A stretch of DNA of 51,794 nt, taken from positions 1-51,794 of the forward strand of contig NZ_FNGS01000013.1 of assembly GCF_900103285.1 (NCBI RefSeq), given 5' to 3'. Positions within the stretch are counted from its first letter, which is position 1. Every line of letters starts with the position of its first letter. The notes beneath the pieces are model-generated. The model searched no databases. It had not been told where the DNA came from and saw only the letters and a list, made by a program, of their open reading frames with translations. The position numbers were made by a program, and so were the translations under genes. This document shows positions 4,144-48,223 of the stretch, in pieces. Source of the DNA: Siphonobacter aquaeclarae (lineage in GTDB: Bacteria; Bacteroidota; Bacteroidia; Cytophagales; Spirosomataceae).

Positions 4144-5502
4144 CTAGCTATCGAGGCCGAAAATCGGTTTGTTCGTTTTCCACTTTCCGCGGGTGAAATC
4201 CGGAATGGGGATGGGTTTCGATCCTTTTTTGATGGAAAGCTCCGACAGCGGTGCGATGGCCGACCAGGCAGCGGCATCGTATACGTCCATCGTCGGGGAA
4301 GTCTTGTTCTGGATCGCGAGGATGAAATCACGGATGACGAAATAGTCCATCCCGCCGTGACCGGCGCCTTTGGCGTCCTTTTCGAACTTTTTCCACAACG
4401 GGTGGTCGTACTTTTCCATGTATGCTTTGTCCGGCTCCCAGGTATGGGGTTTCGGGCTCACTTTCTCCAGGTAAATCTGATCGCCTTCGTCCATCCAGAT
4501 ACCGTTTACACCCTGTACCTTAAAGCCCAGGGAATACGGGCGCGGGCTGTTCGTATCGTGTGTAATGAGAATCGTTTCGCCGTTGTAACACTTCACCATC
4601 GTCTGAACAACATCGCCCAGCTTGAAATCTACCTTGGCATTCGGGTGATTGGGTCCGCCGTTGTCTACTACATATTTGTGAAGACCGCGGGACTTGGTAG
4701 CCATTGACACCAGGTACTCAAACTGGTTACCCCGGTTGATGTTGACCATCTCCGCGACCGGTCCGAGGCCGTGCGTCGGGTACAGGTCGCCATTCCGGGT
4801 AACAGAGTGCTGGGTACGCCATTTCGCTTCCGAGAAAGCCTTCTCTCCGAATTCAACGCCGCCGCCGTAGGCTTTTTTGCCGTCGTTGAATTTCACTTCG
4901 CGCAGGTCGTGCTCATATCCGCACTCGAGGTGGGTAAGTTCGCCGAAAAGACCGCTGCGTACCATATTCAGGGCCGCCATGACGTCCCGGCGGTAGCATA
5001 CGTTTTCCAGAATCATGCAGTGAGAACCGGTCTTTTCATAGGTATTGACCAGGTCCCAGGATTCCTGAAGGGTAACCGTAGCGGATACTTCGACCGCTGC
5101 ATATTTGCCGGCCTTCATTGCGGAAACAGCCATCGGTACGTGCCATTCCCAGGGCGTGGCAATAACGATACCGTCCAGGTCTTCCCGCTTGACCATGTTT
5201 TCAAAATCACGCTCTCCCTTTCCGTAGACCGCGGCTTCCTTCCGGCCGGAGTCCCGGAGCATTTTCTGGGCTTTTTCCACCGCGGCCGGATCGATGTCAC
5301 AGATCGCGTTGATTTCCACCTGGGAGAAAAGGATACTGTTGCGGACGTGTTCACGTCCCCGCAGACCAACACCGATGAATCCGAGCCGAACTTTTCTGTC
5401 GTTGGGAACCGCCTTCAGAATATGAGGGAAAAAAGCGGCTCCAGCGGCAGCCATGGCCGAATTTTTCAGAAAATGCCGACGGTGTTGCGTGTCATTTTTC
5501 AT
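4144..5502 (-). CDS. GH109-type Gfo/Idh/MocA protein (alpha-N-acetylgalactosaminidase-like), exported
   Basis: 452 residues. A Tat-like signal (R8-R9-H-F-L-K followed by an Ala-rich segment) suggests export in folded form with its cofactor. A Rossmann motif GFIGVGLRG (41-49) binds NAD(H). The blocks ATPWEWH, EVSATVTLQESW, LENVCY and Y241-P-T-H244-GLGP with NINRG are those of GH109, a family that cleaves alpha-GalNAc by an NAD-dependent oxidation-elimination route. This separates it from ordinary inositol-type dehydrogenases. It is the third gene after the LacI operator, 21 bases after the nucleotidyltransferase. Substrate by family: terminal alpha-GalNAc; not proven here. Confidence 0.85.
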   Translation of the reverse strand: MKNDTQHRRHFLKNSAMAAAGAAFFPHILKAVPNDRKVRLGFIGVGLRGREHVRNSILFSQVEINAICDIDPAAVEKAQKMLRDSGRKEAAVYGKGERDFENMVKREDLDGIVIATPWEWHVPMAVSAMKAGKYAAVEVSATVTLQESWDLVNTYEKTGSHCMILENVCYRRDVMAALNMVRSGLFGELTHLECGYEHDLREVKFNDGKKAYGGGVEFGEKAFSEAKWRTQHSVTRNGDLYPTHGLGPVAEMVNINRGNQFEYLVSMATKSRGLHKYVVDNGGPNHPNAKVDFKLGDVVQTMVKCYNGETILITHDTNSPRPYSLGFKVQGVNGIWMDEGDQIYLEKVSPKPHTWEPDKAYMEKYDHPLWKKFEKDAKGAGHGGMDYFVIRDFILAIQNKTSPTMDVYDAAAWSAIAPLSELSIKKGSKPIPIPDFTRGKWKTNKPIFGLDS

Positions 5503-5523
5503 AGTAAATAGTCTGTTGTTCAG

Positions 5524-6378
5524 TTAAAGAGAATATTTTTCAGCGAGGTATTTCTGAACCACGGCGATGTCCTTCTTGCTGGTCAGGTCCGGTACGTTTT
5601 CGGACAACGGTATTGCGTATACGCGCTTAGTTTTCGCGAGCTTATTGACCGACGTTGGCAGCTCTTTTTCGTTCCGGACCGGATGGAAAGGCGTTTCCTT
5701 CAGGCAGGGAATGATCTGGCTGGCTTCGAAAGCAAACAGGTTCATGCTGACGCCTACGCGGCCTTCGCGGGCGCGGGCGGCTTCCACTTCTTCTTCGGTC
5801 GGTTTTTCGTGAATGTCGATCAGGAATCCCTCTTCGTCGGTGCGGATCAGGGCGAATCCCTGAATACGTTCGGCCGGAAAATCAAGTGCATCCCGGTCAT
5901 AGCTGATCAGCGCATTGGCCGTTTTGCTGTTCCAGACCAGCTGAAGGGCCCGGGTAGAATACAGGTTGTCGCTGTTGCAGACCACCAGGCGACCTGTTTG
6001 CCAGTCAGCTGTCTGTTCCAGCGCCTGGAGTACTGCGTCGGCGGTTCCGGCTGGTTTGGTCCGGTCTGATGCAATGAATTGCCGTGCAAAACGGACCGTG
6101 AGGCCTCCAAGGCGCGTCCGGGTTTCTTCCGATTCGTAATAGGGCTGCGTGATCCGGTCTTCGGGATGCAGCAGCAGCAGTACTTCTTCGAAGCCGGCTT
6201 CGATCGCATTGGTCAACTGGTAATCGATGAGCGACTTTCCGGCGGCTCCCACACTGATCATGCCTTTGGTAAGGGAGTCGGCCTGTTCGATCAGTTTCTG
6301 GTCGATATCGAGGTCTTCTACCGCTTTTTTCATCCGGGAGGACATTCCTCCGGCGAGAATCAACAGGCGTTTGGACAT
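5524..6378 (-). CDS. sugar-1-phosphate nucleotidyltransferase
   Basis: 284 residues, cytoplasmic. The N-terminus MSKRLLILAGGMSSRM is the glycine-rich nucleotide-binding loop of NTP_transferase enzymes, which join NTP and a sugar 1-phosphate. LIDYQL, a CNSDNLY metal/nucleotide site and an HEKP block agree. There is no left-handed beta-helix, so no acetyltransferase fusion. It starts 35 bases after the GHMP kinase gene and is co-transcribed with it; together they could form a two-step route from free sugar to NDP-sugar, like Fkp of Bacteroides but as two proteins (inference). Sugar and nucleotide cannot be read from the sequence. Confidence 0.82.
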   Translation of the reverse strand: MSKRLLILAGGMSSRMKKAVEDLDIDQKLIEQADSLTKGMISVGAAGKSLIDYQLTNAIEAGFEEVLLLLHPEDRITQPYYESEETRTRLGGLTVRFARQFIASDRTKPAGTADAVLQALEQTADWQTGRLVVCNSDNLYSTRALQLVWNSKTANALISYDRDALDFPAERIQGFALIRTDEEGFLIDIHEKPTEEEVEAARAREGRVGVSMNLFAFEASQIIPCLKETPFHPVRNEKELPTSVNKLAKTKRVYAIPLSENVPDLTSKKDIAVVQKYLAEKYSL

Positions 6379-6413
6379 GGTATTGTTAGTCGTTTATACG
6401 CTTTCAGGAAGGA

Positions 6414-7493
6414 TCAGACCAGCTCGGTCCGCACGCCTTCGTCAATGGTAATGATGTAACTTTTGCCGCCTTCGCGTTCGATGGCTTCGGCGACGGCTTC
6501 GGCGTTATCCGGCGCATAGGCAAACATGCAGCCTCCGCCTCCGGAGCCGTTGATTTTGGCGCCGAGTGCGCCGGCATTGCGTGCGGCGTCGATCATACGA
6601 TCAATCTTCGGCGTGGAAATACGCTTGGCTTCCCGGAGGTTGATCTGGTGCCGGTTCAGCAGGTTGCCGAATACCACCGGATCGACATTGCCTTTTTCCA
6701 GCAGGGTCTTGGCTTCCAGGAGGATATCCCGGTCGGAAAGGTTACCCTTGAAAAGGATGAATTCGTCATCGGTAAGCAGTTGACGAAACTCGTCGGCCTG
6801 TGCTGCGGGGAAGGTATGGAGCGAGAACCCGGGGTTTACTTCCCGGATTTTCCGCACTGCTTCCAGCATACCGTATTTGACGTGTTTTAATACGCCCAGG
6901 GTGTCTTTTGCCGTCTGCGAATCGCCGAGTACGAAGGTTCCGCTGATCGGTTTCAGCGCTTCCACCTTCGGTACCGGCCACGATTCGAGGTAAATGACGT
7001 TTCCGACCGAAATCGAGGTCTGATCCATCCGGCCTCCGGGTTCGCCAAACTCTTCGACTTCGGCACGGTAAGCCAGATCCGCCAGCTCGGCGGCCGTCTT
7101 GATGTGTGCGGTCCGGGCGAGCCGGTCCAGGAAGTAGGCCCAGCCAACCACCAGCGCCGACGAACTGGACGTACCGGCGTTGATAGGGATATTACTCGTC
7201 AGCCGGATGTCATATCCGGACGGAATAACGGCCCCTTCCCGCTGCAGCAGGTTGATGACGCTTTTATAGTAGTCCCGTTGGTTGTCGTACGGGATCTCGG
7301 ATTGAAGGGTGAACGATTCGGTCTGGTGTATGTCGGGCAGGGATATCCGGATCTGCCTGTCCGGACGGGGTTCTCCCTCGATCCGGAGGCGGAGTGAGAT
7401 AGCAGCGGCAATGACGGGAAGTCCCAGGTAATCCTGGTGTTCCCCAAAAAGGCAAATTCGGCCCGGAGCCGAGACGGAGAATCGTTGACTCAT
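6414..7493 (-). CDS. GHMP-family sugar kinase (galactokinase-like)
   Basis: 359 residues from the ATG at 7493; an in-frame ATG at 7502 and a TTG at 7520 also exist. I chose 7493 because the family begins with APGR close to the N-terminus (here A9-P-G-R, then GEHQDY at 17-22). Motif 2, PINAGTSSSSAL, is at 103-114 (ATP phosphate loop) and motif 3, GAKINGSGGGGCMF, begins at 311. The enzyme phosphorylates a sugar at C1 by family expectation. It is the first gene of the glycan operon, after the LacI operator. The companion GH109 and sulfatase make N-acetylgalactosamine or galactose reasonable substrates; glucuronic acid is an alternative. Confidence 0.85.
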   Translation of the reverse strand: MSQRFSVSAPGRICLFGEHQDYLGLPVIAAAISLRLRIEGEPRPDRQIRISLPDIHQTESFTLQSEIPYDNQRDYYKSVINLLQREGAVIPSGYDIRLTSNIPINAGTSSSSALVVGWAYFLDRLARTAHIKTAAELADLAYRAEVEEFGEPGGRMDQTSISVGNVIYLESWPVPKVEALKPISGTFVLGDSQTAKDTLGVLKHVKYGMLEAVRKIREVNPGFSLHTFPAAQADEFRQLLTDDEFILFKGNLSDRDILLEAKTLLEKGNVDPVVFGNLLNRHQINLREAKRISTPKIDRMIDAARNAGALGAKINGSGGGGCMFAYAPDNAEAVAEAIEREGGKSYIITIDEGVRTELV

Positions 7494-39343: not shown

Positions 39344-40744
39344 CTACAAAATCGTCCTGAAGAAAATAAACAACGTCCCCGCCAGAAACATCGACACCGG
39401 AAGCGTCAGCACCCAGGCCAGTACAATGTTTCGGATGGTACCTGCCTGGAGGTTTTTGATGCCCTTGTTGGCCACCATACTACCGGCGATACCCGAAGAA
39501 AGTACGTGTGTCGTCGATACCGGCAGACCGAGCCCGGAAGACATTCCGATGGTGCTGGCTGCGACGAGCTCGGCGCTCGCGCCCTGTGCATAGGTCAGGT
39601 GCTGCTTGCCGATTTTTTCGCCGACGGTCACCACGATCCGCTTCCAGCCGACCATCGTACCCAGGCCGAGGGAGAGCGAAATCAACAGAATAACCCAGGT
39701 CGGCGCATACTCTGTATAGGACTTCAGGGCTTTGAGCGACTCGCTCAGCTTGGCCGTTTCATCGCGGTTGAGCGTCAGCGCGCCGTCTTTCTGAATCTTG
39801 GAAAGATCGCGGGAAATAAGGAGAATATCCTTGCGGGATTCGAGGCGCAGCTGCGGAGGAATCTTGCCGTTGCTCACCGTCAGCACACTATCGAGATCGG
39901 TGATGCTGGACTTGACAATTTTCAGCTTTTCCTTGTCCACTTCCGCCAGGCGGCCTTCTTCGATGCGGTTGACCAGCGTTTCGATCTGGACAAGGTTAGT
40001 GTGGAGGTGCGACGTATCCCGGCTGGCGTCCAGCGCGAAGTACGCCGGCGTAATCCCGATGAGGATAAGCATGATCAGGCCGACGCCCTTCTGCCCGTCG
40101 TTCGAGCCGTGGAAGAAACTCACCCCGGTACACGTCAGGATCAGGATACCCCGGATCCAGCCCGGAGGCGTCTGGTTTTTCTTCGGCTCTTTAAAGATGA
40201 TATCATTTTTTACCGTCCGCTTCAGGATGAACATCAGGATGATGACGAGGCTGAAACCGACCAGGGGCGAAAGCAGCAGGGCGAAGCCCGTTTCCTTGGC
40301 CTTGTCCCAGTTGACCGAGCTCGTACCGGCCGTGTTTTCCGGAAGCAGGGCATAGGCGAGGCCTACGCCGAGAATCGAACCAATAAGTGTATGGGAAGAA
40401 GAGGACGGAAGTCCGAAATACCAGGTACCGAGGTTCCAGATGATGGCGCTTATGAGTAGCGATAGCACCATCGCCACGGCATGGTAGACATTTTGGTCTA
40501 TTAGCAGTTCAACAGGCAGTAGGTTCACAATCCCCATTGCTACGCTGATTCCCCCGAAAAATACCCCGAGAAAGTTGCAGAATCCGGACCAGATAACGGC
40601 GATATTCGGTTTCAGCGAGTTGGTGTAAATCACCGTTGCCACTGCGTTGGCCGTATCGTGAAACCCGTTGACAAACTCGAACGCACAGGCGCAGAAAAGG
40701 CAGATACACAGAAGAATAAAAATTCCAGTCTCTAAGCCGAACAT
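39344..40744 (-). CDS. pit: inorganic phosphate transporter, PiT/PHO4 family
   Basis: 466 residues, around ten membrane segments. The two PHO4 signatures are FEFVNGFHDTANAVATVIYT near the N-terminus and LGLPVSTTHVLSSGIAGSM near the C-terminus; a central GVSFFHGSNDGQKGVG repeats the first, showing the internal duplication of the family. A polar central region (about 250-350, SHLHTNLVQIETLVNRIEEGRLAEVDKEKL) is a cytoplasmic loop. It imports phosphate with a cation. No phoU-like or DUF47 partner gene is next to it. Confidence 0.95.
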   Translation of the reverse strand: MFGLETGIFILLCICLFCACAFEFVNGFHDTANAVATVIYTNSLKPNIAVIWSGFCNFLGVFFGGISVAMGIVNLLPVELLIDQNVYHAVAMVLSLLISAIIWNLGTWYFGLPSSSSHTLIGSILGVGLAYALLPENTAGTSSVNWDKAKETGFALLLSPLVGFSLVIILMFILKRTVKNDIIFKEPKKNQTPPGWIRGILILTCTGVSFFHGSNDGQKGVGLIMLILIGITPAYFALDASRDTSHLHTNLVQIETLVNRIEEGRLAEVDKEKLKIVKSSITDLDSVLTVSNGKIPPQLRLESRKDILLISRDLSKIQKDGALTLNRDETAKLSESLKALKSYTEYAPTWVILLISLSLGLGTMVGWKRIVVTVGEKIGKQHLTYAQGASAELVAASTIGMSSGLGLPVSTTHVLSSGIAGSMVANKGIKNLQAGTIRNIVLAWVLTLPVSMFLAGTLFIFFRTIL

Positions 40745-44593: not shown

Positions 44594-47500
44594 TTAAAAC
44601 AAAAAGCCCAGACGAATCATCGGGATGTTTTCCTCGCGGGAGTGCGCGTAGACGAGCGAAATAACCGCCGCCTGATACGGAGCAAACCAAATGCCGCCGC
44701 CTACGCCCCTGTGCCACTGATTGGAATTCTCACCGGGTTGCCACACCCGGCCAATGTCATGGAAGGCCAGCACACCCAGGTATGCCGGGAAGAAGTAGGT
44801 ACGCAGCGTGGCGATTTTCAGGCGGGCCTCCAGGTTGTGGTAGAGGCTGGATTTTCCGGCGAAGCGCGTCCGCCGGAACCCGCGCAGGTTGCTCAGTCCG
44901 CCCAGGGTATTCGACTGGAAAAATTCATAATCGTCAAAGTTCTTGCCTCCGCCCAGGCGCGTGGCGAGGGTCAGGCGGGCCGGCAGCCGGGCCGACCAAT
45001 AAAAAGCCAGCTCTCCCTCCAGCCGGTTCAGGTTTTTCGTGCTTTCCCGCAGGCCTTTGTAAACCAGGTAGTTGGTATTGAGGTAGATACCGCGCGTCGG
45101 ATAGAGCTTGCTGTCCCGGTTGTCGAACGTAAGACCGGCCTTCAGGCCGCCATACCATTTTGTCTTCAGCAGACGGTCGGCTTCCACCGGTCCGACGGTC
45201 TCGAGGTACTGATTGATATACCGGTTTTTGTTTTCCTCCAGTTCAATCTGCTCCACGACCGGACCGGCGAAGAGCGTCAGGTGCGAGCCTACCCGTTTGC
45301 GCAACAGGGCGTCGAGGTGCCATTCTTCGAAACGGGTACGGTAGTAGCGGATTTTTTTGTCCCGGTCAAATACCGTTTCGTTCCCCAGCCCGAAGAAGTT
45401 ACGGACGAAATTCGGTGAGCGTATTTCGGCGTTTACCTGCAGATCCAGAGAGCCGATCAGGTGGGTGAAATCGCCCTGGTAGTCGAAATTATAGGCTTTT
45501 GTTGCAAAGGAGTGGTTGACAGTGATCCGGTGCTGCGCCGCAAACGGATTTTTCCGGAAGCCCTGTTTCCGGATCAATACACCGCCACCGAGGAATACGC
45601 CGTCGTCCGGGTTGAATTGAACCGACACCAGCGGCTGAATCAGGTCATATAAAAACGACTTTCGGTTGTAGAGGTTTACGGATGCATGGTCAGAAAGCTC
45701 TGAACGGGTTTCGTGGCCGCCTTCGAGACGGGTACTGTCTTTGGTGTCATAAACGACGGTCTTTCGCCGTAAGCCATTCACGTGCGACGAATCCCGGATA
45801 TCGTCCATGCCGGTACCGCCGATAATCCGGATGACAGGGCCCCGGACGGCGCTGCCGCCTACCCGGAATACGTCGTTACCGCCGAGGCCGTACAGCCGTA
45901 CTTCGTTGGTTTCTGTCGGGTCAAAAACGCGGGAATAGAGCTCCTTGCCGCCTTTTTTGGTCATGCGGACTTCTGTCTTGCCGTCCGGAAGGCGGTTGAC
46001 GAGGAATAATTCTTCTTTGTCGCTTCCGACGACGTCCACCGCTTTTGCCAGAAACAGGTACTGCTGTTCGGCATAGCGGGTGAGGTCTTCGCGGCGCTGC
46101 CGGAGTTTGGAGGCGATTGTCTCGGCGCTCTGTTTGATGGCGCCGGAGCCATCGGCTGAAACGGGAAACCGGCTCATGGCTTCCGCGATCCGTTCGTCCG
46201 TCAGCCGGTGGCGCAGAGAATCTGCCATCCGGAGCCAGTCGGCCTTGCCGGGTTCGGTCAGGAAGGATCGGTCGAAGTACCGGGCGTTGAAGTTAAAGCC
46301 GGGCACATCCCGGATGGTGAAGCCAAAGCCCTGGAACTTGGGCATAATCCACTTGCGGGAGACGATTTTCGGAAGAATACCTTCGTTGACGAAAAAGGCC
46401 TGGTCCCGGTCCCGCGGAATGGGAATATAGCTCTGGGTCTTTTTGGTTTTTTCAACGGCCCAGCGCCATTGATCGTCGTGGCGGTCCCAGTCGCCCAGCC
46501 ACATATCAAACAACCGGGCGCGGAGTACCTCCTGCTGATTGACCTGATTGTCATTGTCTTCTGCGAGTTTCTGGAGGACTTTATCCGTCGAAATAACCTT
46601 CTTGAATCCGCTGAAGCCATCGTCTCCCCGTTCTTCATACAGAACCATCTGCCCGGCAAACTGGCGCCGGTAAGGACCGAGGGTCGTATCGGCCGGGAGG
46701 CGTACTACTTCGGGATTGGTGTGCAGAACCCCTGCAGCGCCGGCCAGCGGGGGGATCGCGAGCGCGGCATACGGGTGCGAGGCCGATATCTGATCCTGCA
46801 CCAGATCGGCAACAAAGCCGCTGCGCAGGGAGAGGGGAATGGCGTTTTCCGCATACTTTTCCACACTCCGCATGACATACTGCATGCCGCTTTTGGCTTC
46901 CAGCCGCAGGGAGAGCGTCTGCATACCTCCGCCTTTCTGAAGAATTTTCAGGCCGCCGCGTTCGGTAGGGAGATCGACGGTACGGGTCCGGATGGGCGTT
47001 GCCCAAACATCCCGGTAGTTGCTTCCCAGCCACATCCGTTTGCGGAAGCCCGCTCCATAGTGGAGAGAAGCTGCCTGTATTTCAGGTAGTTTGGTTGTTG
47101 TCGGGACGTTGTTAACCGGACGCAGCCGCGGTAACGGAATGACCTGGGAGTAGAGAATACGCCCTTCTGAGAAGGCCGAATCGGGGGCGTAAAACCGGAT
47201 AGTAAGAGAGTCGGCTCCGTAGTCCAGCCGGGCGAACCCTTTGGTACTTTCTGCAAAACGGGAATCGCGGGCTTTCTTTACCGGCGTTTGTTTCGATCCG
47301 CTACCGCTGGTGAGGTAGTAGAGCGAATCCCGCTCGATGAGCTGGAGGTTGTGGTCGTGCCCGTTGGCGTAAAATACATTTCCGTATTGCCGGAGCAGCC
47401 GGACCATTCCGTTGCGGAATAGCTGGTATTTCGGGTGAGGAATATCCTGGATATTACCGATCAGTGTCCGGTAAAGGGGGTAAATAGACCCGATGACGGG

Positions 47501-48223
47501 TAGCGGAACGTACAGCCAGGGTACCTTTTCCGTCAGCGGAAAAAGGTGATCTTTCCAGGTATAATACCCGCCGTGATCCCCGTGGGAGTACATCGGATGG
47601 TGGCCGAGTACGAGTACCTGCCTGTGCTGGTTGCGTTCGAGAATATCTTCGACGGCGATGAAGAACGAAGCGATGTCGGTGGTACCGCAGTCGGACGTTT
47701 CATCCGGTTTGTCCCACGGGTGCAGCCAGTACTGGCTGTCGAAGGCCAGAATGGTCAGTTCAGGGCTGACCGGGATTTCAACCGGCCCCGGGCATCCGCC
47801 TTCCGGTACGAAGACATCGTCCCGGCCGGTGAGCTGGCGGATGTAGTCGGCCTGGTTCCGGACGCGGTTCCAGCCATCCTTATGTCCCTGCTGCCAGTCG
47901 TGATTGCCGGGAATGACGAGGGTTTTTCCCTTGAAATCCCGGATAATGGCCAGTTGGTCTTTGAGTTTCTGTTCGAGCGGAGCGCGGCCCGGTCCGGGAG
48001 CGGGCAGACCGGACGGATAGAGATTATCTCCAAGAAAAGCCATCAGCGCATTAGGTCCGGCCGTGGTCAGCTGTTTCTGCAAGGTGGAGAGTACCGGGTC
48101 GTGCCCCGGTACGGGGTTTCCGGCGTCGCCAAGGAGAAAGACCGAATAGCGGGGGGCCTGCTGTGCCAGGGCGGCGGTCCACCCCAAAAACCAGAAAACC
48201 AATAAAAGGAGACGTTTCGTCAT
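44594..48223 (-). CDS. metallophosphoesterase / kinase-like / outer-membrane barrel fusion protein
   Basis: 1209 residues. Signal peptide 1-20 (TAALAQ). About 25-350: a calcineurin-type phosphoesterase with all metal blocks, GDAG (32-35), GDN (65-67), GNHD (106-109), GHH (207-209) and GHDHN (288-292). About 420-630: an unassigned region with LQKGGGMQ, YVMRSVEK (449-456), LGDWDRHDD (576-584) and PIPRDRDQAFF (601-611), in the order of a Fam20/HipA-type atypical kinase. About 850-1209: a BamA/TamA-like outer-membrane barrel (LRGFRRTRFAGKSSLYHNLEARL). It probably sits in the outer membrane with its enzymes in the periplasm or outside. The phosphatase and barrel calls are firm; the kinase resemblance is my inference. 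Confidence 0.85.
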   Translation of the reverse strand: MTKRLLLLVFWFLGWTAALAQQAPRYSVFLLGDAGNPVPGHDPVLSTLQKQLTTAGPNALMAFLGDNLYPSGLPAPGPGRAPLEQKLKDQLAIIRDFKGKTLVIPGNHDWQQGHKDGWNRVRNQADYIRQLTGRDDVFVPEGGCPGPVEIPVSPELTILAFDSQYWLHPWDKPDETSDCGTTDIASFFIAVEDILERNQHRQVLVLGHHPMYSHGDHGGYYTWKDHLFPLTEKVPWLYVPLPVIGSIYPLYRTLIGNIQDIPHPKYQLFRNGMVRLLRQYGNVFYANGHDHNLQLIERDSLYYLTSGSGSKQTPVKKARDSRFAESTKGFARLDYGADSLTIRFYAPDSAFSEGRILYSQVIPLPRLRPVNNVPTTTKLPEIQAASLHYGAGFRKRMWLGSNYRDVWATPIRTRTVDLPTERGGLKILQKGGGMQTLSLRLEAKSGMQYVMRSVEKYAENAIPLSLRSGFVADLVQDQISASHPYAALAIPPLAGAAGVLHTNPEVVRLPADTTLGPYRRQFAGQMVLYEERGDDGFSGFKKVISTDKVLQKLAEDNDNQVNQQEVLRARLFDMWLGDWDRHDDQWRWAVEKTKKTQSYIPIPRDRDQAFFVNEGILPKIVSRKWIMPKFQGFGFTIRDVPGFNFNARYFDRSFLTEPGKADWLRMADSLRHRLTDERIAEAMSRFPVSADGSGAIKQSAETIASKLRQRREDLTRYAEQQYLFLAKAVDVVGSDKEELFLVNRLPDGKTEVRMTKKGGKELYSRVFDPTETNEVRLYGLGGNDVFRVGGSAVRGPVIRIIGGTGMDDIRDSSHVNGLRRKTVVYDTKDSTRLEGGHETRSELSDHASVNLYNRKSFLYDLIQPLVSVQFNPDDGVFLGGGVLIRKQGFRKNPFAAQHRITVNHSFATKAYNFDYQGDFTHLIGSLDLQVNAEIRSPNFVRNFFGLGNETVFDRDKKIRYYRTRFEEWHLDALLRKRVGSHLTLFAGPVVEQIELEENKNRYINQYLETVGPVEADRLLKTKWYGGLKAGLTFDNRDSKLYPTRGIYLNTNYLVYKGLRESTKNLNRLEGELAFYWSARLPARLTLATRLGGGKNFDDYEFFQSNTLGGLSNLRGFRRTRFAGKSSLYHNLEARLKIATLRTYFFPAYLGVLAFHDIGRVWQPGENSNQWHRGVGGGIWFAPYQAAVISLVYAHSREENIPMIRLGFLF

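What the first reader, a model, noticed from the sequence alone, without database searches (positions are those of the whole stretch)
44594..48223. Phosphatase, atypical-kinase-like region and Omp85 barrel in one protein
Seen: between the phosphoesterase (to about 350) and the barrel (from about 850) there is a region with a Gly-rich turn (GGGMQ), a Lys in YVMRSVEK, then LGDWDRHDD and PRDRDQAFF 22 residues later. Known: Fam20-type kinases have GNxDRH followed by a D-N-G-x-x-F, and HipA-type kinases a similar pair. Inference: a secretory kinase fold is combined with a phosphatase at the outer membrane, perhaps to add and remove phosphate on surface glycans, lipids or proteins.
Basis: partly seen in the sequence, partly recalled or inferred. 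Interest (0 to 1): 0.8.

Follow-up and report, generated by a model that had tools for sequence, protein, structure and literature searches.

The report
Outer-membrane protein with predicted kinase, phosphatase
An apparently unrecognised family of bacterial envelope proteins carries a predicted kinase fold next to a phosphatase and an outer-membrane barrel, which hints that some bacteria may add and remove phosphate outside the cytoplasm; no enzyme activity has been tested.

Summary
The ORF is real: 44594-48223 (-), 1209 aa: signal peptide, purple-acid-phosphatase-like metallophosphoesterase (MPE), unannotated middle domain, beta-domain, 16-strand BamA-type barrel. The middle domain has no Pfam match but is predicted with confidence (pLDDT 92) as a protein-kinase-like fold: all 17 PDB matches at E<=0.001 are kinases, nearest CtkA, HipA and PI4KII, then CotH and Fam20C; a sequence profile also puts CtkA first. 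Architectures: MPE-kinase-beta-barrel 75, kinase-beta-barrel 40, kinase-beta 2, kinase alone 5; 113 of 122 begin with an export-type hydrophobic segment. In this set all 75 MPE forms keep the kinase site; the 11 degenerate kinases lack MPE. One MPE form outside it (L022) has both sites degenerate. A 2014 Omp85 survey listed a PF00149-Omp85 class as 'metalloprotease'. Catalysis, donor and substrate are untested.

The parts
44594..48223 (-). Whole gene, 1209 aa: signal peptide, MPE, kinase-like domain, beta-domain, Omp85 barrel
48161..48223 (-). Signal peptide, about residues 1-21, judged by eye
   Evidence: a hydrophobic segment precedes the first domain in 113 of 122 homologous ORFs
47129..48157 (-). 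Purple-acid-phosphatase-like metallophosphoesterase, residues 23-365 (D33, D66, Y69, N107, H108, H208, H289, H291)
   Evidence: Pfam Metallophos; TRAP/PAP and GAP50 matches; the eight positions all intact in 70 of 75
46040..47080 (-). Kinase-like (PKL) domain, residues 382-728
   Evidence: AlphaFold2 pLDDT 92.4; Foldseek; CtkA top of PDB sequence profile search
46916..46936 (-). Gly-rich loop KGGGMQT, residues 430-436
   Evidence: G431 111, G432 113, G433 91, Q435 108 of 122
46856..46870 (-). R452 to K456, candidate nucleotide-binding basic residues
   Evidence: R452 112, K456 117 of 122
46460..46492 (-). Predicted catalytic loop, residues 578-588 (D578, D580, R581, H582, Q585, W586, W588)
   Evidence: D580 116, Q585 117 of 122; in register with the HipA_C catalytic loop, 0 of 100 shuffles as good, but not with a full-length HipA alignment (7 of 60 shuffles); aligned with CtkA
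46391..46417 (-). Predicted metal-binding segment, residues 603-611 (D605, R606, D607)
   Evidence: D605 114, R606 111, D607 112 of 122
45674..46039 (-). All-beta linker domain, residues 729-850 (in the place of POTRA domains)
   Evidence: secondary structure of both models; not found in the 5 kinase-alone ORFs of 122
44597..45652 (-). 16-stranded Omp85/BamA-type barrel, residues 858-1209
   Evidence: Pfam Omp85 54.1 bits; 16 long strands; Foldseek BamA E 1.6e-10

Best explanation
It is an outer-membrane-anchored protein that faces the periplasm and carries two opposed enzymes: a kinase-like domain of a new, unannotated family nearest to the HipA/CtkA/PI4KII part of the protein-kinase-like fold, and a purple-acid-phosphatase-like phosphatase. 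Shown by computation: predicted fold, conserved active-site residues, export-type N-termini, barrel, architectures. Inferred: the barrel fixes the enzymes under the outer membrane; the kinase (Gly-loop 431-433, R452/K456, base D580, metal ligands Q585 and D605/D607) transfers phosphate from a nucleotide or other donor to a protein, lipid or glycan of the envelope; the MPE removes phosphate from the same or a related substrate, or clears spent nucleotide.
For: Kinase-like model at pLDDT 92.4. 17 of 17 PDB matches at E<=0.001 are kinases, best CtkA 1.1e-5. The profile's top hit among 177,635 PDB sequences is CtkA, E 0.006. Catalytic segment against the HipA_C alignment: 0 of 100 shuffles as good. 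K456+D580+D605 intact in 111 of 122 ORFs; nine catalytic-site residues intact in 75 of 75 MPE-bearing ORFs; the 11 degenerate kinases of that set are all among the 40 MPE-less barrel forms. MPE ligands intact in 70 of 75. Hydrophobic export-type segment in 113 of 122. Present in 113 of 296 genomes of the phylum, own included.
Against: No activity data. The periplasm is normally held to be poor in ATP (recalled); bacteria do release ATP (PMC3882102, abstract), but the donor is unknown. The metal-binding Asn of HipA (recalled) is Gln here, and the beta-3 Lys position may hold R452. Profile-profile support is weak: against HipA_C the whole domain is reached by 4 of 100 shuffles and the N-lobe by 86 of 100; against full-length HipA the whole domain by 1 of 60, the catalytic segment by 7 of 60, and the N-lobe by 0 of 60 but at a non-equivalent place; against CotH 7, 23 and 27 of 60; the first hhalign runs gave probabilities under 1%. 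TM-scores to the 17 kinases are modest (target-normalised at most 0.52). Five MPEs of 75 have lost ligands. L022, an MPE form outside the 122, has lost D580 and MPE ligands together.
Confidence: 0.62

Rival explanations
1. Pseudokinase sensor: the domain binds a nucleotide or other ligand and gates the phosphatase or the barrel, without phosphotransfer.
For: Degenerate forms exist: 11 of 40 MPE-less barrel forms, the stand-alone L023 and the MPE form L022; Gln in place of the usual metal-binding Asn and Arg near the beta-3 Lys position.
Against: Nine catalytic-site residues are intact in 75 of 75 MPE-bearing ORFs, 2 of 2 kinase-beta and 5 of 5 kinase-alone ORFs, as expected of an active enzyme; solo forms have no phosphatase or barrel to gate.
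Confidence: 0.17
2. A kinase fold with other chemistry (AMPylation as in SelO, or glutamylation as in SidJ; both recalled), using the same metal-nucleotide site.
For: PKL folds have been re-used this way (recalled); active-site residues differ from canonical kinases.
Against: No SelO or SidJ among the 50 Foldseek rows listed of 946; a phosphatase partner fits phosphorylation more simply.
Confidence: 0.08
3. Phosphate-scavenging enzyme: the MPE releases phosphate and the kinase-like domain is a substrate-handling or regulatory module; neighbours PPK and a phytase-like propeller fit phosphate metabolism.
For: PPK near 19 of 122 ORFs, SdiA-regulated/phytase-like lipoprotein near 48; a PHO4 phosphate transporter gene lies at 39344-40744 in the window.
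Against: 47 of 122 homologues lack the MPE but keep the domain, 36 of them with an intact kinase site; five keep the kinase and lose MPE ligands.
Confidence: 0.1
4. Type Vd-like export: the barrel moves the enzymes to the cell surface.
For: PlpD was first described so (PMC4104836, passages).
Against: PlpD's enzyme domain was later found to stay in the periplasm (PMC11116518, abstract and passages); some homologues are kinase-alone ORFs with an anchor-like N-terminus and no barrel.
Confidence: 0.1

Closest known systems
CtkA (Helicobacter pylori) and HipA/HipT kinases
   Same: Best structural matches; CtkA also the best sequence-profile match, catalytic loops aligned
   Different: Here exported and fused to MPE and barrel; Gln for Asn; no HipA_C match for the window protein; extra beta-domain
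PI4K type II
   Same: Fold match E 5.5e-5; similar catalytic-loop pattern (recalled)
   Different: Eukaryotic lipid kinase; no sequence hit
CotH and Fam20C secretory kinases
   Same: Kinase fold used outside the cytoplasm; Foldseek E 1.3e-4 (CotH) and 9.2e-4 (Fam20C)
   Different: No significant profile match to CotH; motifs differ; the genome has three separate CotH genes
Omp85 'Metallo' subfamily of Heinz and Lithgow 2014 (PMC4104836, passages read)
   Same: PF00149 domain plus Omp85 barrel; their 'noNterm' class with a similar barrel may include the MPE-less kinase forms (my inference)
   Different: They call PF00149 a metalloprotease; the word kinase has 0 occurrences in the main text
PlpD patatin-Omp85 (PMC11116518, abstract and passages)
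   Same: Enzyme domain on an Omp85 barrel, periplasmic
   Different: Phospholipase-like, has a POTRA domain; here a kinase-like domain, an MPE and no POTRA detected
Tartrate-resistant purple acid phosphatase
   Same: MPE signature (recalled) and nearest PDB sequence hits
   Different: The solved proteins are separate enzymes without kinase or barrel

Membership tests
Protein-kinase-like (PKL) superfamily | Two-lobed kinase fold | tested here: met
   AlphaFold2 plus Foldseek, 17 of 17 matches at E<=0.001 are kinases
Protein-kinase-like (PKL) superfamily | Gly-loop, basic nucleotide-binding residue, catalytic Asp, metal Asp conserved | tested here: met
   K456 117, D580 116, D605 114 of 122; assignment of roles is inferred
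Protein-kinase-like (PKL) superfamily | ATP-dependent phosphotransfer | not testable with these tools
   needs biochemistry
HipA/CtkA | HipA_C Pfam match | tested here: not met
   no HipA_C match for the window protein; HipA_C is not among the 25 families shown (of 33) for the 74 members at E<=1
HipA/CtkA | Catalytic Asp with metal-binding Asn five residues on (recalled) | tested here: not met
   Asp met; the Asn is Gln in 117 of 122
Fam20C | Fam20C profile match and D-N-G motif (motif recalled) | tested here: not met
   no Pfam hit for the window; motif is D-R-D
CotH | PF08757 match | tested here: not met
   scan of the own genome at E<=10 finds three other genes, not this one
Omp85 superfamily | 16-strand C-terminal barrel with Omp85 profile match | tested here: met
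   54.1 bits against a cut-off of 24; BamA match; 16 strands
Omp85 superfamily | At least one POTRA domain | tested here: not met
   no POTRA family listed; residues 729-850 are predicted nearly all-beta
Purple acid phosphatase-like MPE | GD, GDxxY, GNH, H, GHxH metal signature (recalled) | tested here: met
   window intact; 70 of 75 homologues intact

The most novel reading that the evidence does not exclude
Bacteroidota run a reversible phosphorylation system in the periplasm at the outer membrane: a single BamA-barrel protein holds a kinase and its opposing phosphatase, uses ATP, polyphosphate or another exported donor, and is tied to a cyclic-nucleotide/polyphosphate module (PycTM-HD protein, cyclase, PPK) across the inner membrane.
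Probability: 0.3. Interest if true: 0.92.

Novelty: new variant of a known kind. Interest (0 to 1): 0.76.

Why it matters
A predicted kinase domain found in over a third of the sampled genomes of the phylum (113 of 296, own included) has no match in the Pfam and NCBIfam copies searched. Its fusion to a phosphatase and an outer-membrane barrel gives a concrete, testable candidate for phosphorylation chemistry outside the cytoplasm, where the phosphate donor is an open question, and it gives a class of Omp85 proteins once described as metalloproteases (PMC4104836) a different likely chemistry.

Tried and rejected
Fam20 and CotH kinship: weaker structural matches, CotH profile match not significant. 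HipA membership: catalytic segment 0 of 100 shuffles against the HipA_C alignment, but 7 of 60 against full-length HipA; whole domain 4 of 100 and 1 of 60; N-lobe 86 of 100, and 0 of 60 at a non-equivalent place; no HipA_C match. 'The kinase domain is the most conserved domain': so in the pattern-selected set (51.7% against 37.7-43.0%), not in the phylum-wide set (34.7, 35.1, 32.5 and 32.2%; kinase without the motif stretches 31.7%), so it was an ascertainment effect and was dropped. The Riemerella metallophosphoesterase paper (AEM 2021) is not held; a review lists that protein as a type IX secretion effector (passage), so I take it as a different protein, not checked by sequence. Window neighbours (glycosyltransferase 9, DUF4254, glyoxalase, PdxJ) gave no lead. 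PADLOC: no hit for the protein.

Rows left out: A1 holds the window plus 23 of the 24 other places (L013 left out, near-copy of L012); A2 the window plus 73 of 80 loci (L042, L075, L077, L088, L095, L101, L106 left out; L075's frame stops early); A3 the window plus 40 of 80. The 122 ORFs come from 120 stretches of 109 genomes (of the 113 positive, the own genome and the three weakest, G071, G263, G295, were not fetched); 11 stretches are further copies from the same genomes, and not every further copy was fetched. A few of these genomes also occur. The HipA and CotH comparison sets were 16 and 21 sequences (L122 dropped).
Full report
Observation. Pfam finds Metallophos (29-225) and Omp85 (924-1174) and nothing between; NCBIfam finds only two Omp85-type models, both under their cut-offs. 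For the 74 aligned homologues of the middle region, scanned singly at E<=1, no kinase family is among the 25 of 33 families shown.

Fold. AlphaFold2 on residues 370-860 with 73 homologues gave mean pLDDT 92.4 and pTM 0.92. Foldseek against the PDB: 17 matches at E<=0.001, all kinases (16 so named in the title, one HipA): CtkA 1.1e-5, HipA 1.4e-5, PI4KII-alpha 5.5e-5, CotH 1.3e-4, COQ8A, Wee1, Fam20C 9.2e-4. TM-scores normalised by target are at most 0.52 there, as for a distant relative with inserts. By sequence, a profile searched against 177,635 PDB sequences returned two matches at E<=10, the first CtkA at 0.006 with the catalytic loops aligned, the second an unrelated protein at 0.32. Profile-profile comparison was weaker. 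Against a HipA_C-domain alignment from related genomes, the catalytic segment (555-615) scored above all 100 column shuffles in register with the HipA catalytic loop, but the whole domain was reached by 4 of 100 and the N-lobe by 86 of 100. Against full-length HipA, 1 of 60 shuffles reached the whole domain and 7 of 60 the catalytic segment; the N-lobe beat all 60, but at a non-equivalent place; CotH was not significant.

Full protein. A second model (residues 21-1209, 40 homologues) gave pLDDT 86.6 and pTM 0.81, with 16 long barrel strands at residues 861-1207. Its listed PDB matches are BamA-type barrels (best 1.6e-10) and GAP50, a purple-acid-phosphatase-like fold (1.0e-9). The phosphoesterase also hits tartrate-resistant acid phosphatase by sequence. 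No POTRA was found; the kinase-like and beta-domains lie where POTRAs would be. The distances of active-site residues could not be measured, since the tools give no coordinates.

Conservation without motif selection. In 25 places in 59 near genomes, own included, K456, D578, D605, R606 and D607 are invariant and D580 is 23/25. The two exceptions come from one genome with five copies: L023 (stand-alone) and L022 (an MPE form in which the MPE has lost ligands too). In a phylum-wide sample 113 of 296 genomes, own included, have the domain. From 120 stretches of 109 genomes, 122 ORFs carry it: MPE-kinase-beta-barrel 75, kinase-beta-barrel 40, kinase-beta 2, kinase alone 5. Catalytic residues: R452 112, K456 117, D578 119, D580 116, R581 119, H582 111, Q585 117, D605 114, D607 112 of 122. 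K456+D580+D605 are intact in 75/75, 29/40, 2/2 and 5/5 of the four architectures. MPE ligands are intact in 70/75; the five exceptions keep the kinase site. So in these sets no intact phosphatase occurs with a dead kinase, while a live kinase does occur with a dead or absent phosphatase; the sequences are related, so these are not independent events. On a FastTree of 145 kinase domains (the window, 120 of the 122 ORFs, 24 other places; some long branches) three architecture classes need at least 9 changes.

Location. A hydrophobic 12-residue segment precedes the first domain in 113 of 122 ORFs; a lipobox-like motif follows it in 36 of 75 MPE forms, 4 of 40 barrel forms, 2 of 2 kinase-beta forms and 0 of 5 kinase-alone forms (simple rules, not SignalP). 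The five kinase-alone ORFs start with a long hydrophobic anchor-like segment. Three stand-alone copies that look like lipoproteins by eye lie side by side in one genome (L023-L025). So in nearly all forms the domain looks exported. In Omp85 proteins the N-terminal part is periplasmic, and PlpD's enzyme domain was shown to be so (PMC11116518, abstract and passages).

Surroundings. In 80 motif-selected loci, recurrent neighbours were an HD protein with a Pycsar-effector (PycTM) domain (45 loci), an SdiA-regulated/phytase-like lipoprotein upstream on the same strand (36 loci, 31 within 150 bases), cyclases (24), PPK1 (13), a GAF protein (12) and a histidine phosphatase (7). In the phylum-wide set: HD-PycTM near 76, SdiA-like near 48 (26 upstream on the same strand, 21 downstream on the other, 1 downstream on the same), GAF near 39, cyclase near 30, PPK near 19 of 122 ORFs. 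These loci are related, so the counts are not independent. The window's genome has one close and one remote HD-PycTM match in 6.19 Mb, so a chance neighbour within 16 kb would be expected at under 1% (my estimate). In the window none of these families lies near the gene; the genome's SdiA-like and HD-PycTM genes lie side by side on contig C18 without it, its PPK on C12. In seven of seven relatives looked at, all of the same family, the gene lies within about 1.2 kb of HD-PycTM. The gene has therefore apparently moved in this lineage, or been replaced. What the linkage means is unknown.

Known work. Heinz and Lithgow 2014 (PMC4104836, passages) listed an Omp85 subfamily with PF00149 and named it metalloprotease; PF00149 is the calcineurin-like phosphoesterase family. 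'Kinase' has no occurrence in its main text. They note that barrels of Omp85 proteins without an N-terminal extension resemble it, which would fit the MPE-less kinase forms (inference). Searches of the paper library for a kinase in such proteins listed no paper that, by title and abstract start, describes one; a HipA-family phylogeny (PMC8262856) holds none of the terms CtkA, Bacteroid, signal peptide, periplasm or outer membrane. Most subscription papers and all preprints are outside that library.

Judgement. The kinase-like fold is about 95% likely; an active phosphotransferase about 65%; a kinase and phosphatase acting on one envelope substrate perhaps 35%. The donor is the main weakness: the periplasm is thought poor in ATP (recalled), although ATP release by growing bacteria is reported (PMC3882102, abstract). 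The genome's three CotH genes mean that other kinase-fold proteins of a type that works outside the cytoplasm elsewhere exist in the same organism; their location here was not tested.

Noticed in passing
L029-L108 and L174-L293 (e.g. L299:4772-11912): Recurrent Bacteroidota module: HD-PycTM protein, cyclase that matches PADLOC PycC models, SdiA-regulated/phytase-like lipoprotein, PPK1 and GAF protein around the kinase-barrel gene; Pycsar-like parts in a locus that recurs across the phylum.
   Followed up: partly
L298 (G000:C18, about 242118-244257): In the window's own genome the SdiA-like and HD-PycTM genes sit together without the kinase gene, which is in the window on another contig.
   Followed up: partly
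L023, L024, L025 (one genome, G047:C27:62203-67114): Three stand-alone copies of the kinase-like domain side by side within 5 kb; L023 lacks the catalytic Asp and His.
   Followed up: no
L273-L282 and the first ORF (4713-7373) of L270: Eleven degenerate (pseudo)kinase versions, all MPE-less barrel forms; four share D605R and D607Y.
   Followed up: partly
L010, L215, L237, L283, L284, L285; L022: Three-module proteins whose MPE has lost metal ligands while the kinase site is intact; in L022 both are degenerate.
   Followed up: partly
window 45674-46039 (-): All-beta domain with GGxGxD-type stretches between kinase and barrel; two of 74 homologues weakly hit an RTX calcium-binding repeat (best E 0.024).
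   Followed up: no
window 39344-40744 (-): PHO4-family phosphate transporter gene about 4 kb downstream; link to the finding unknown.
   Followed up: no
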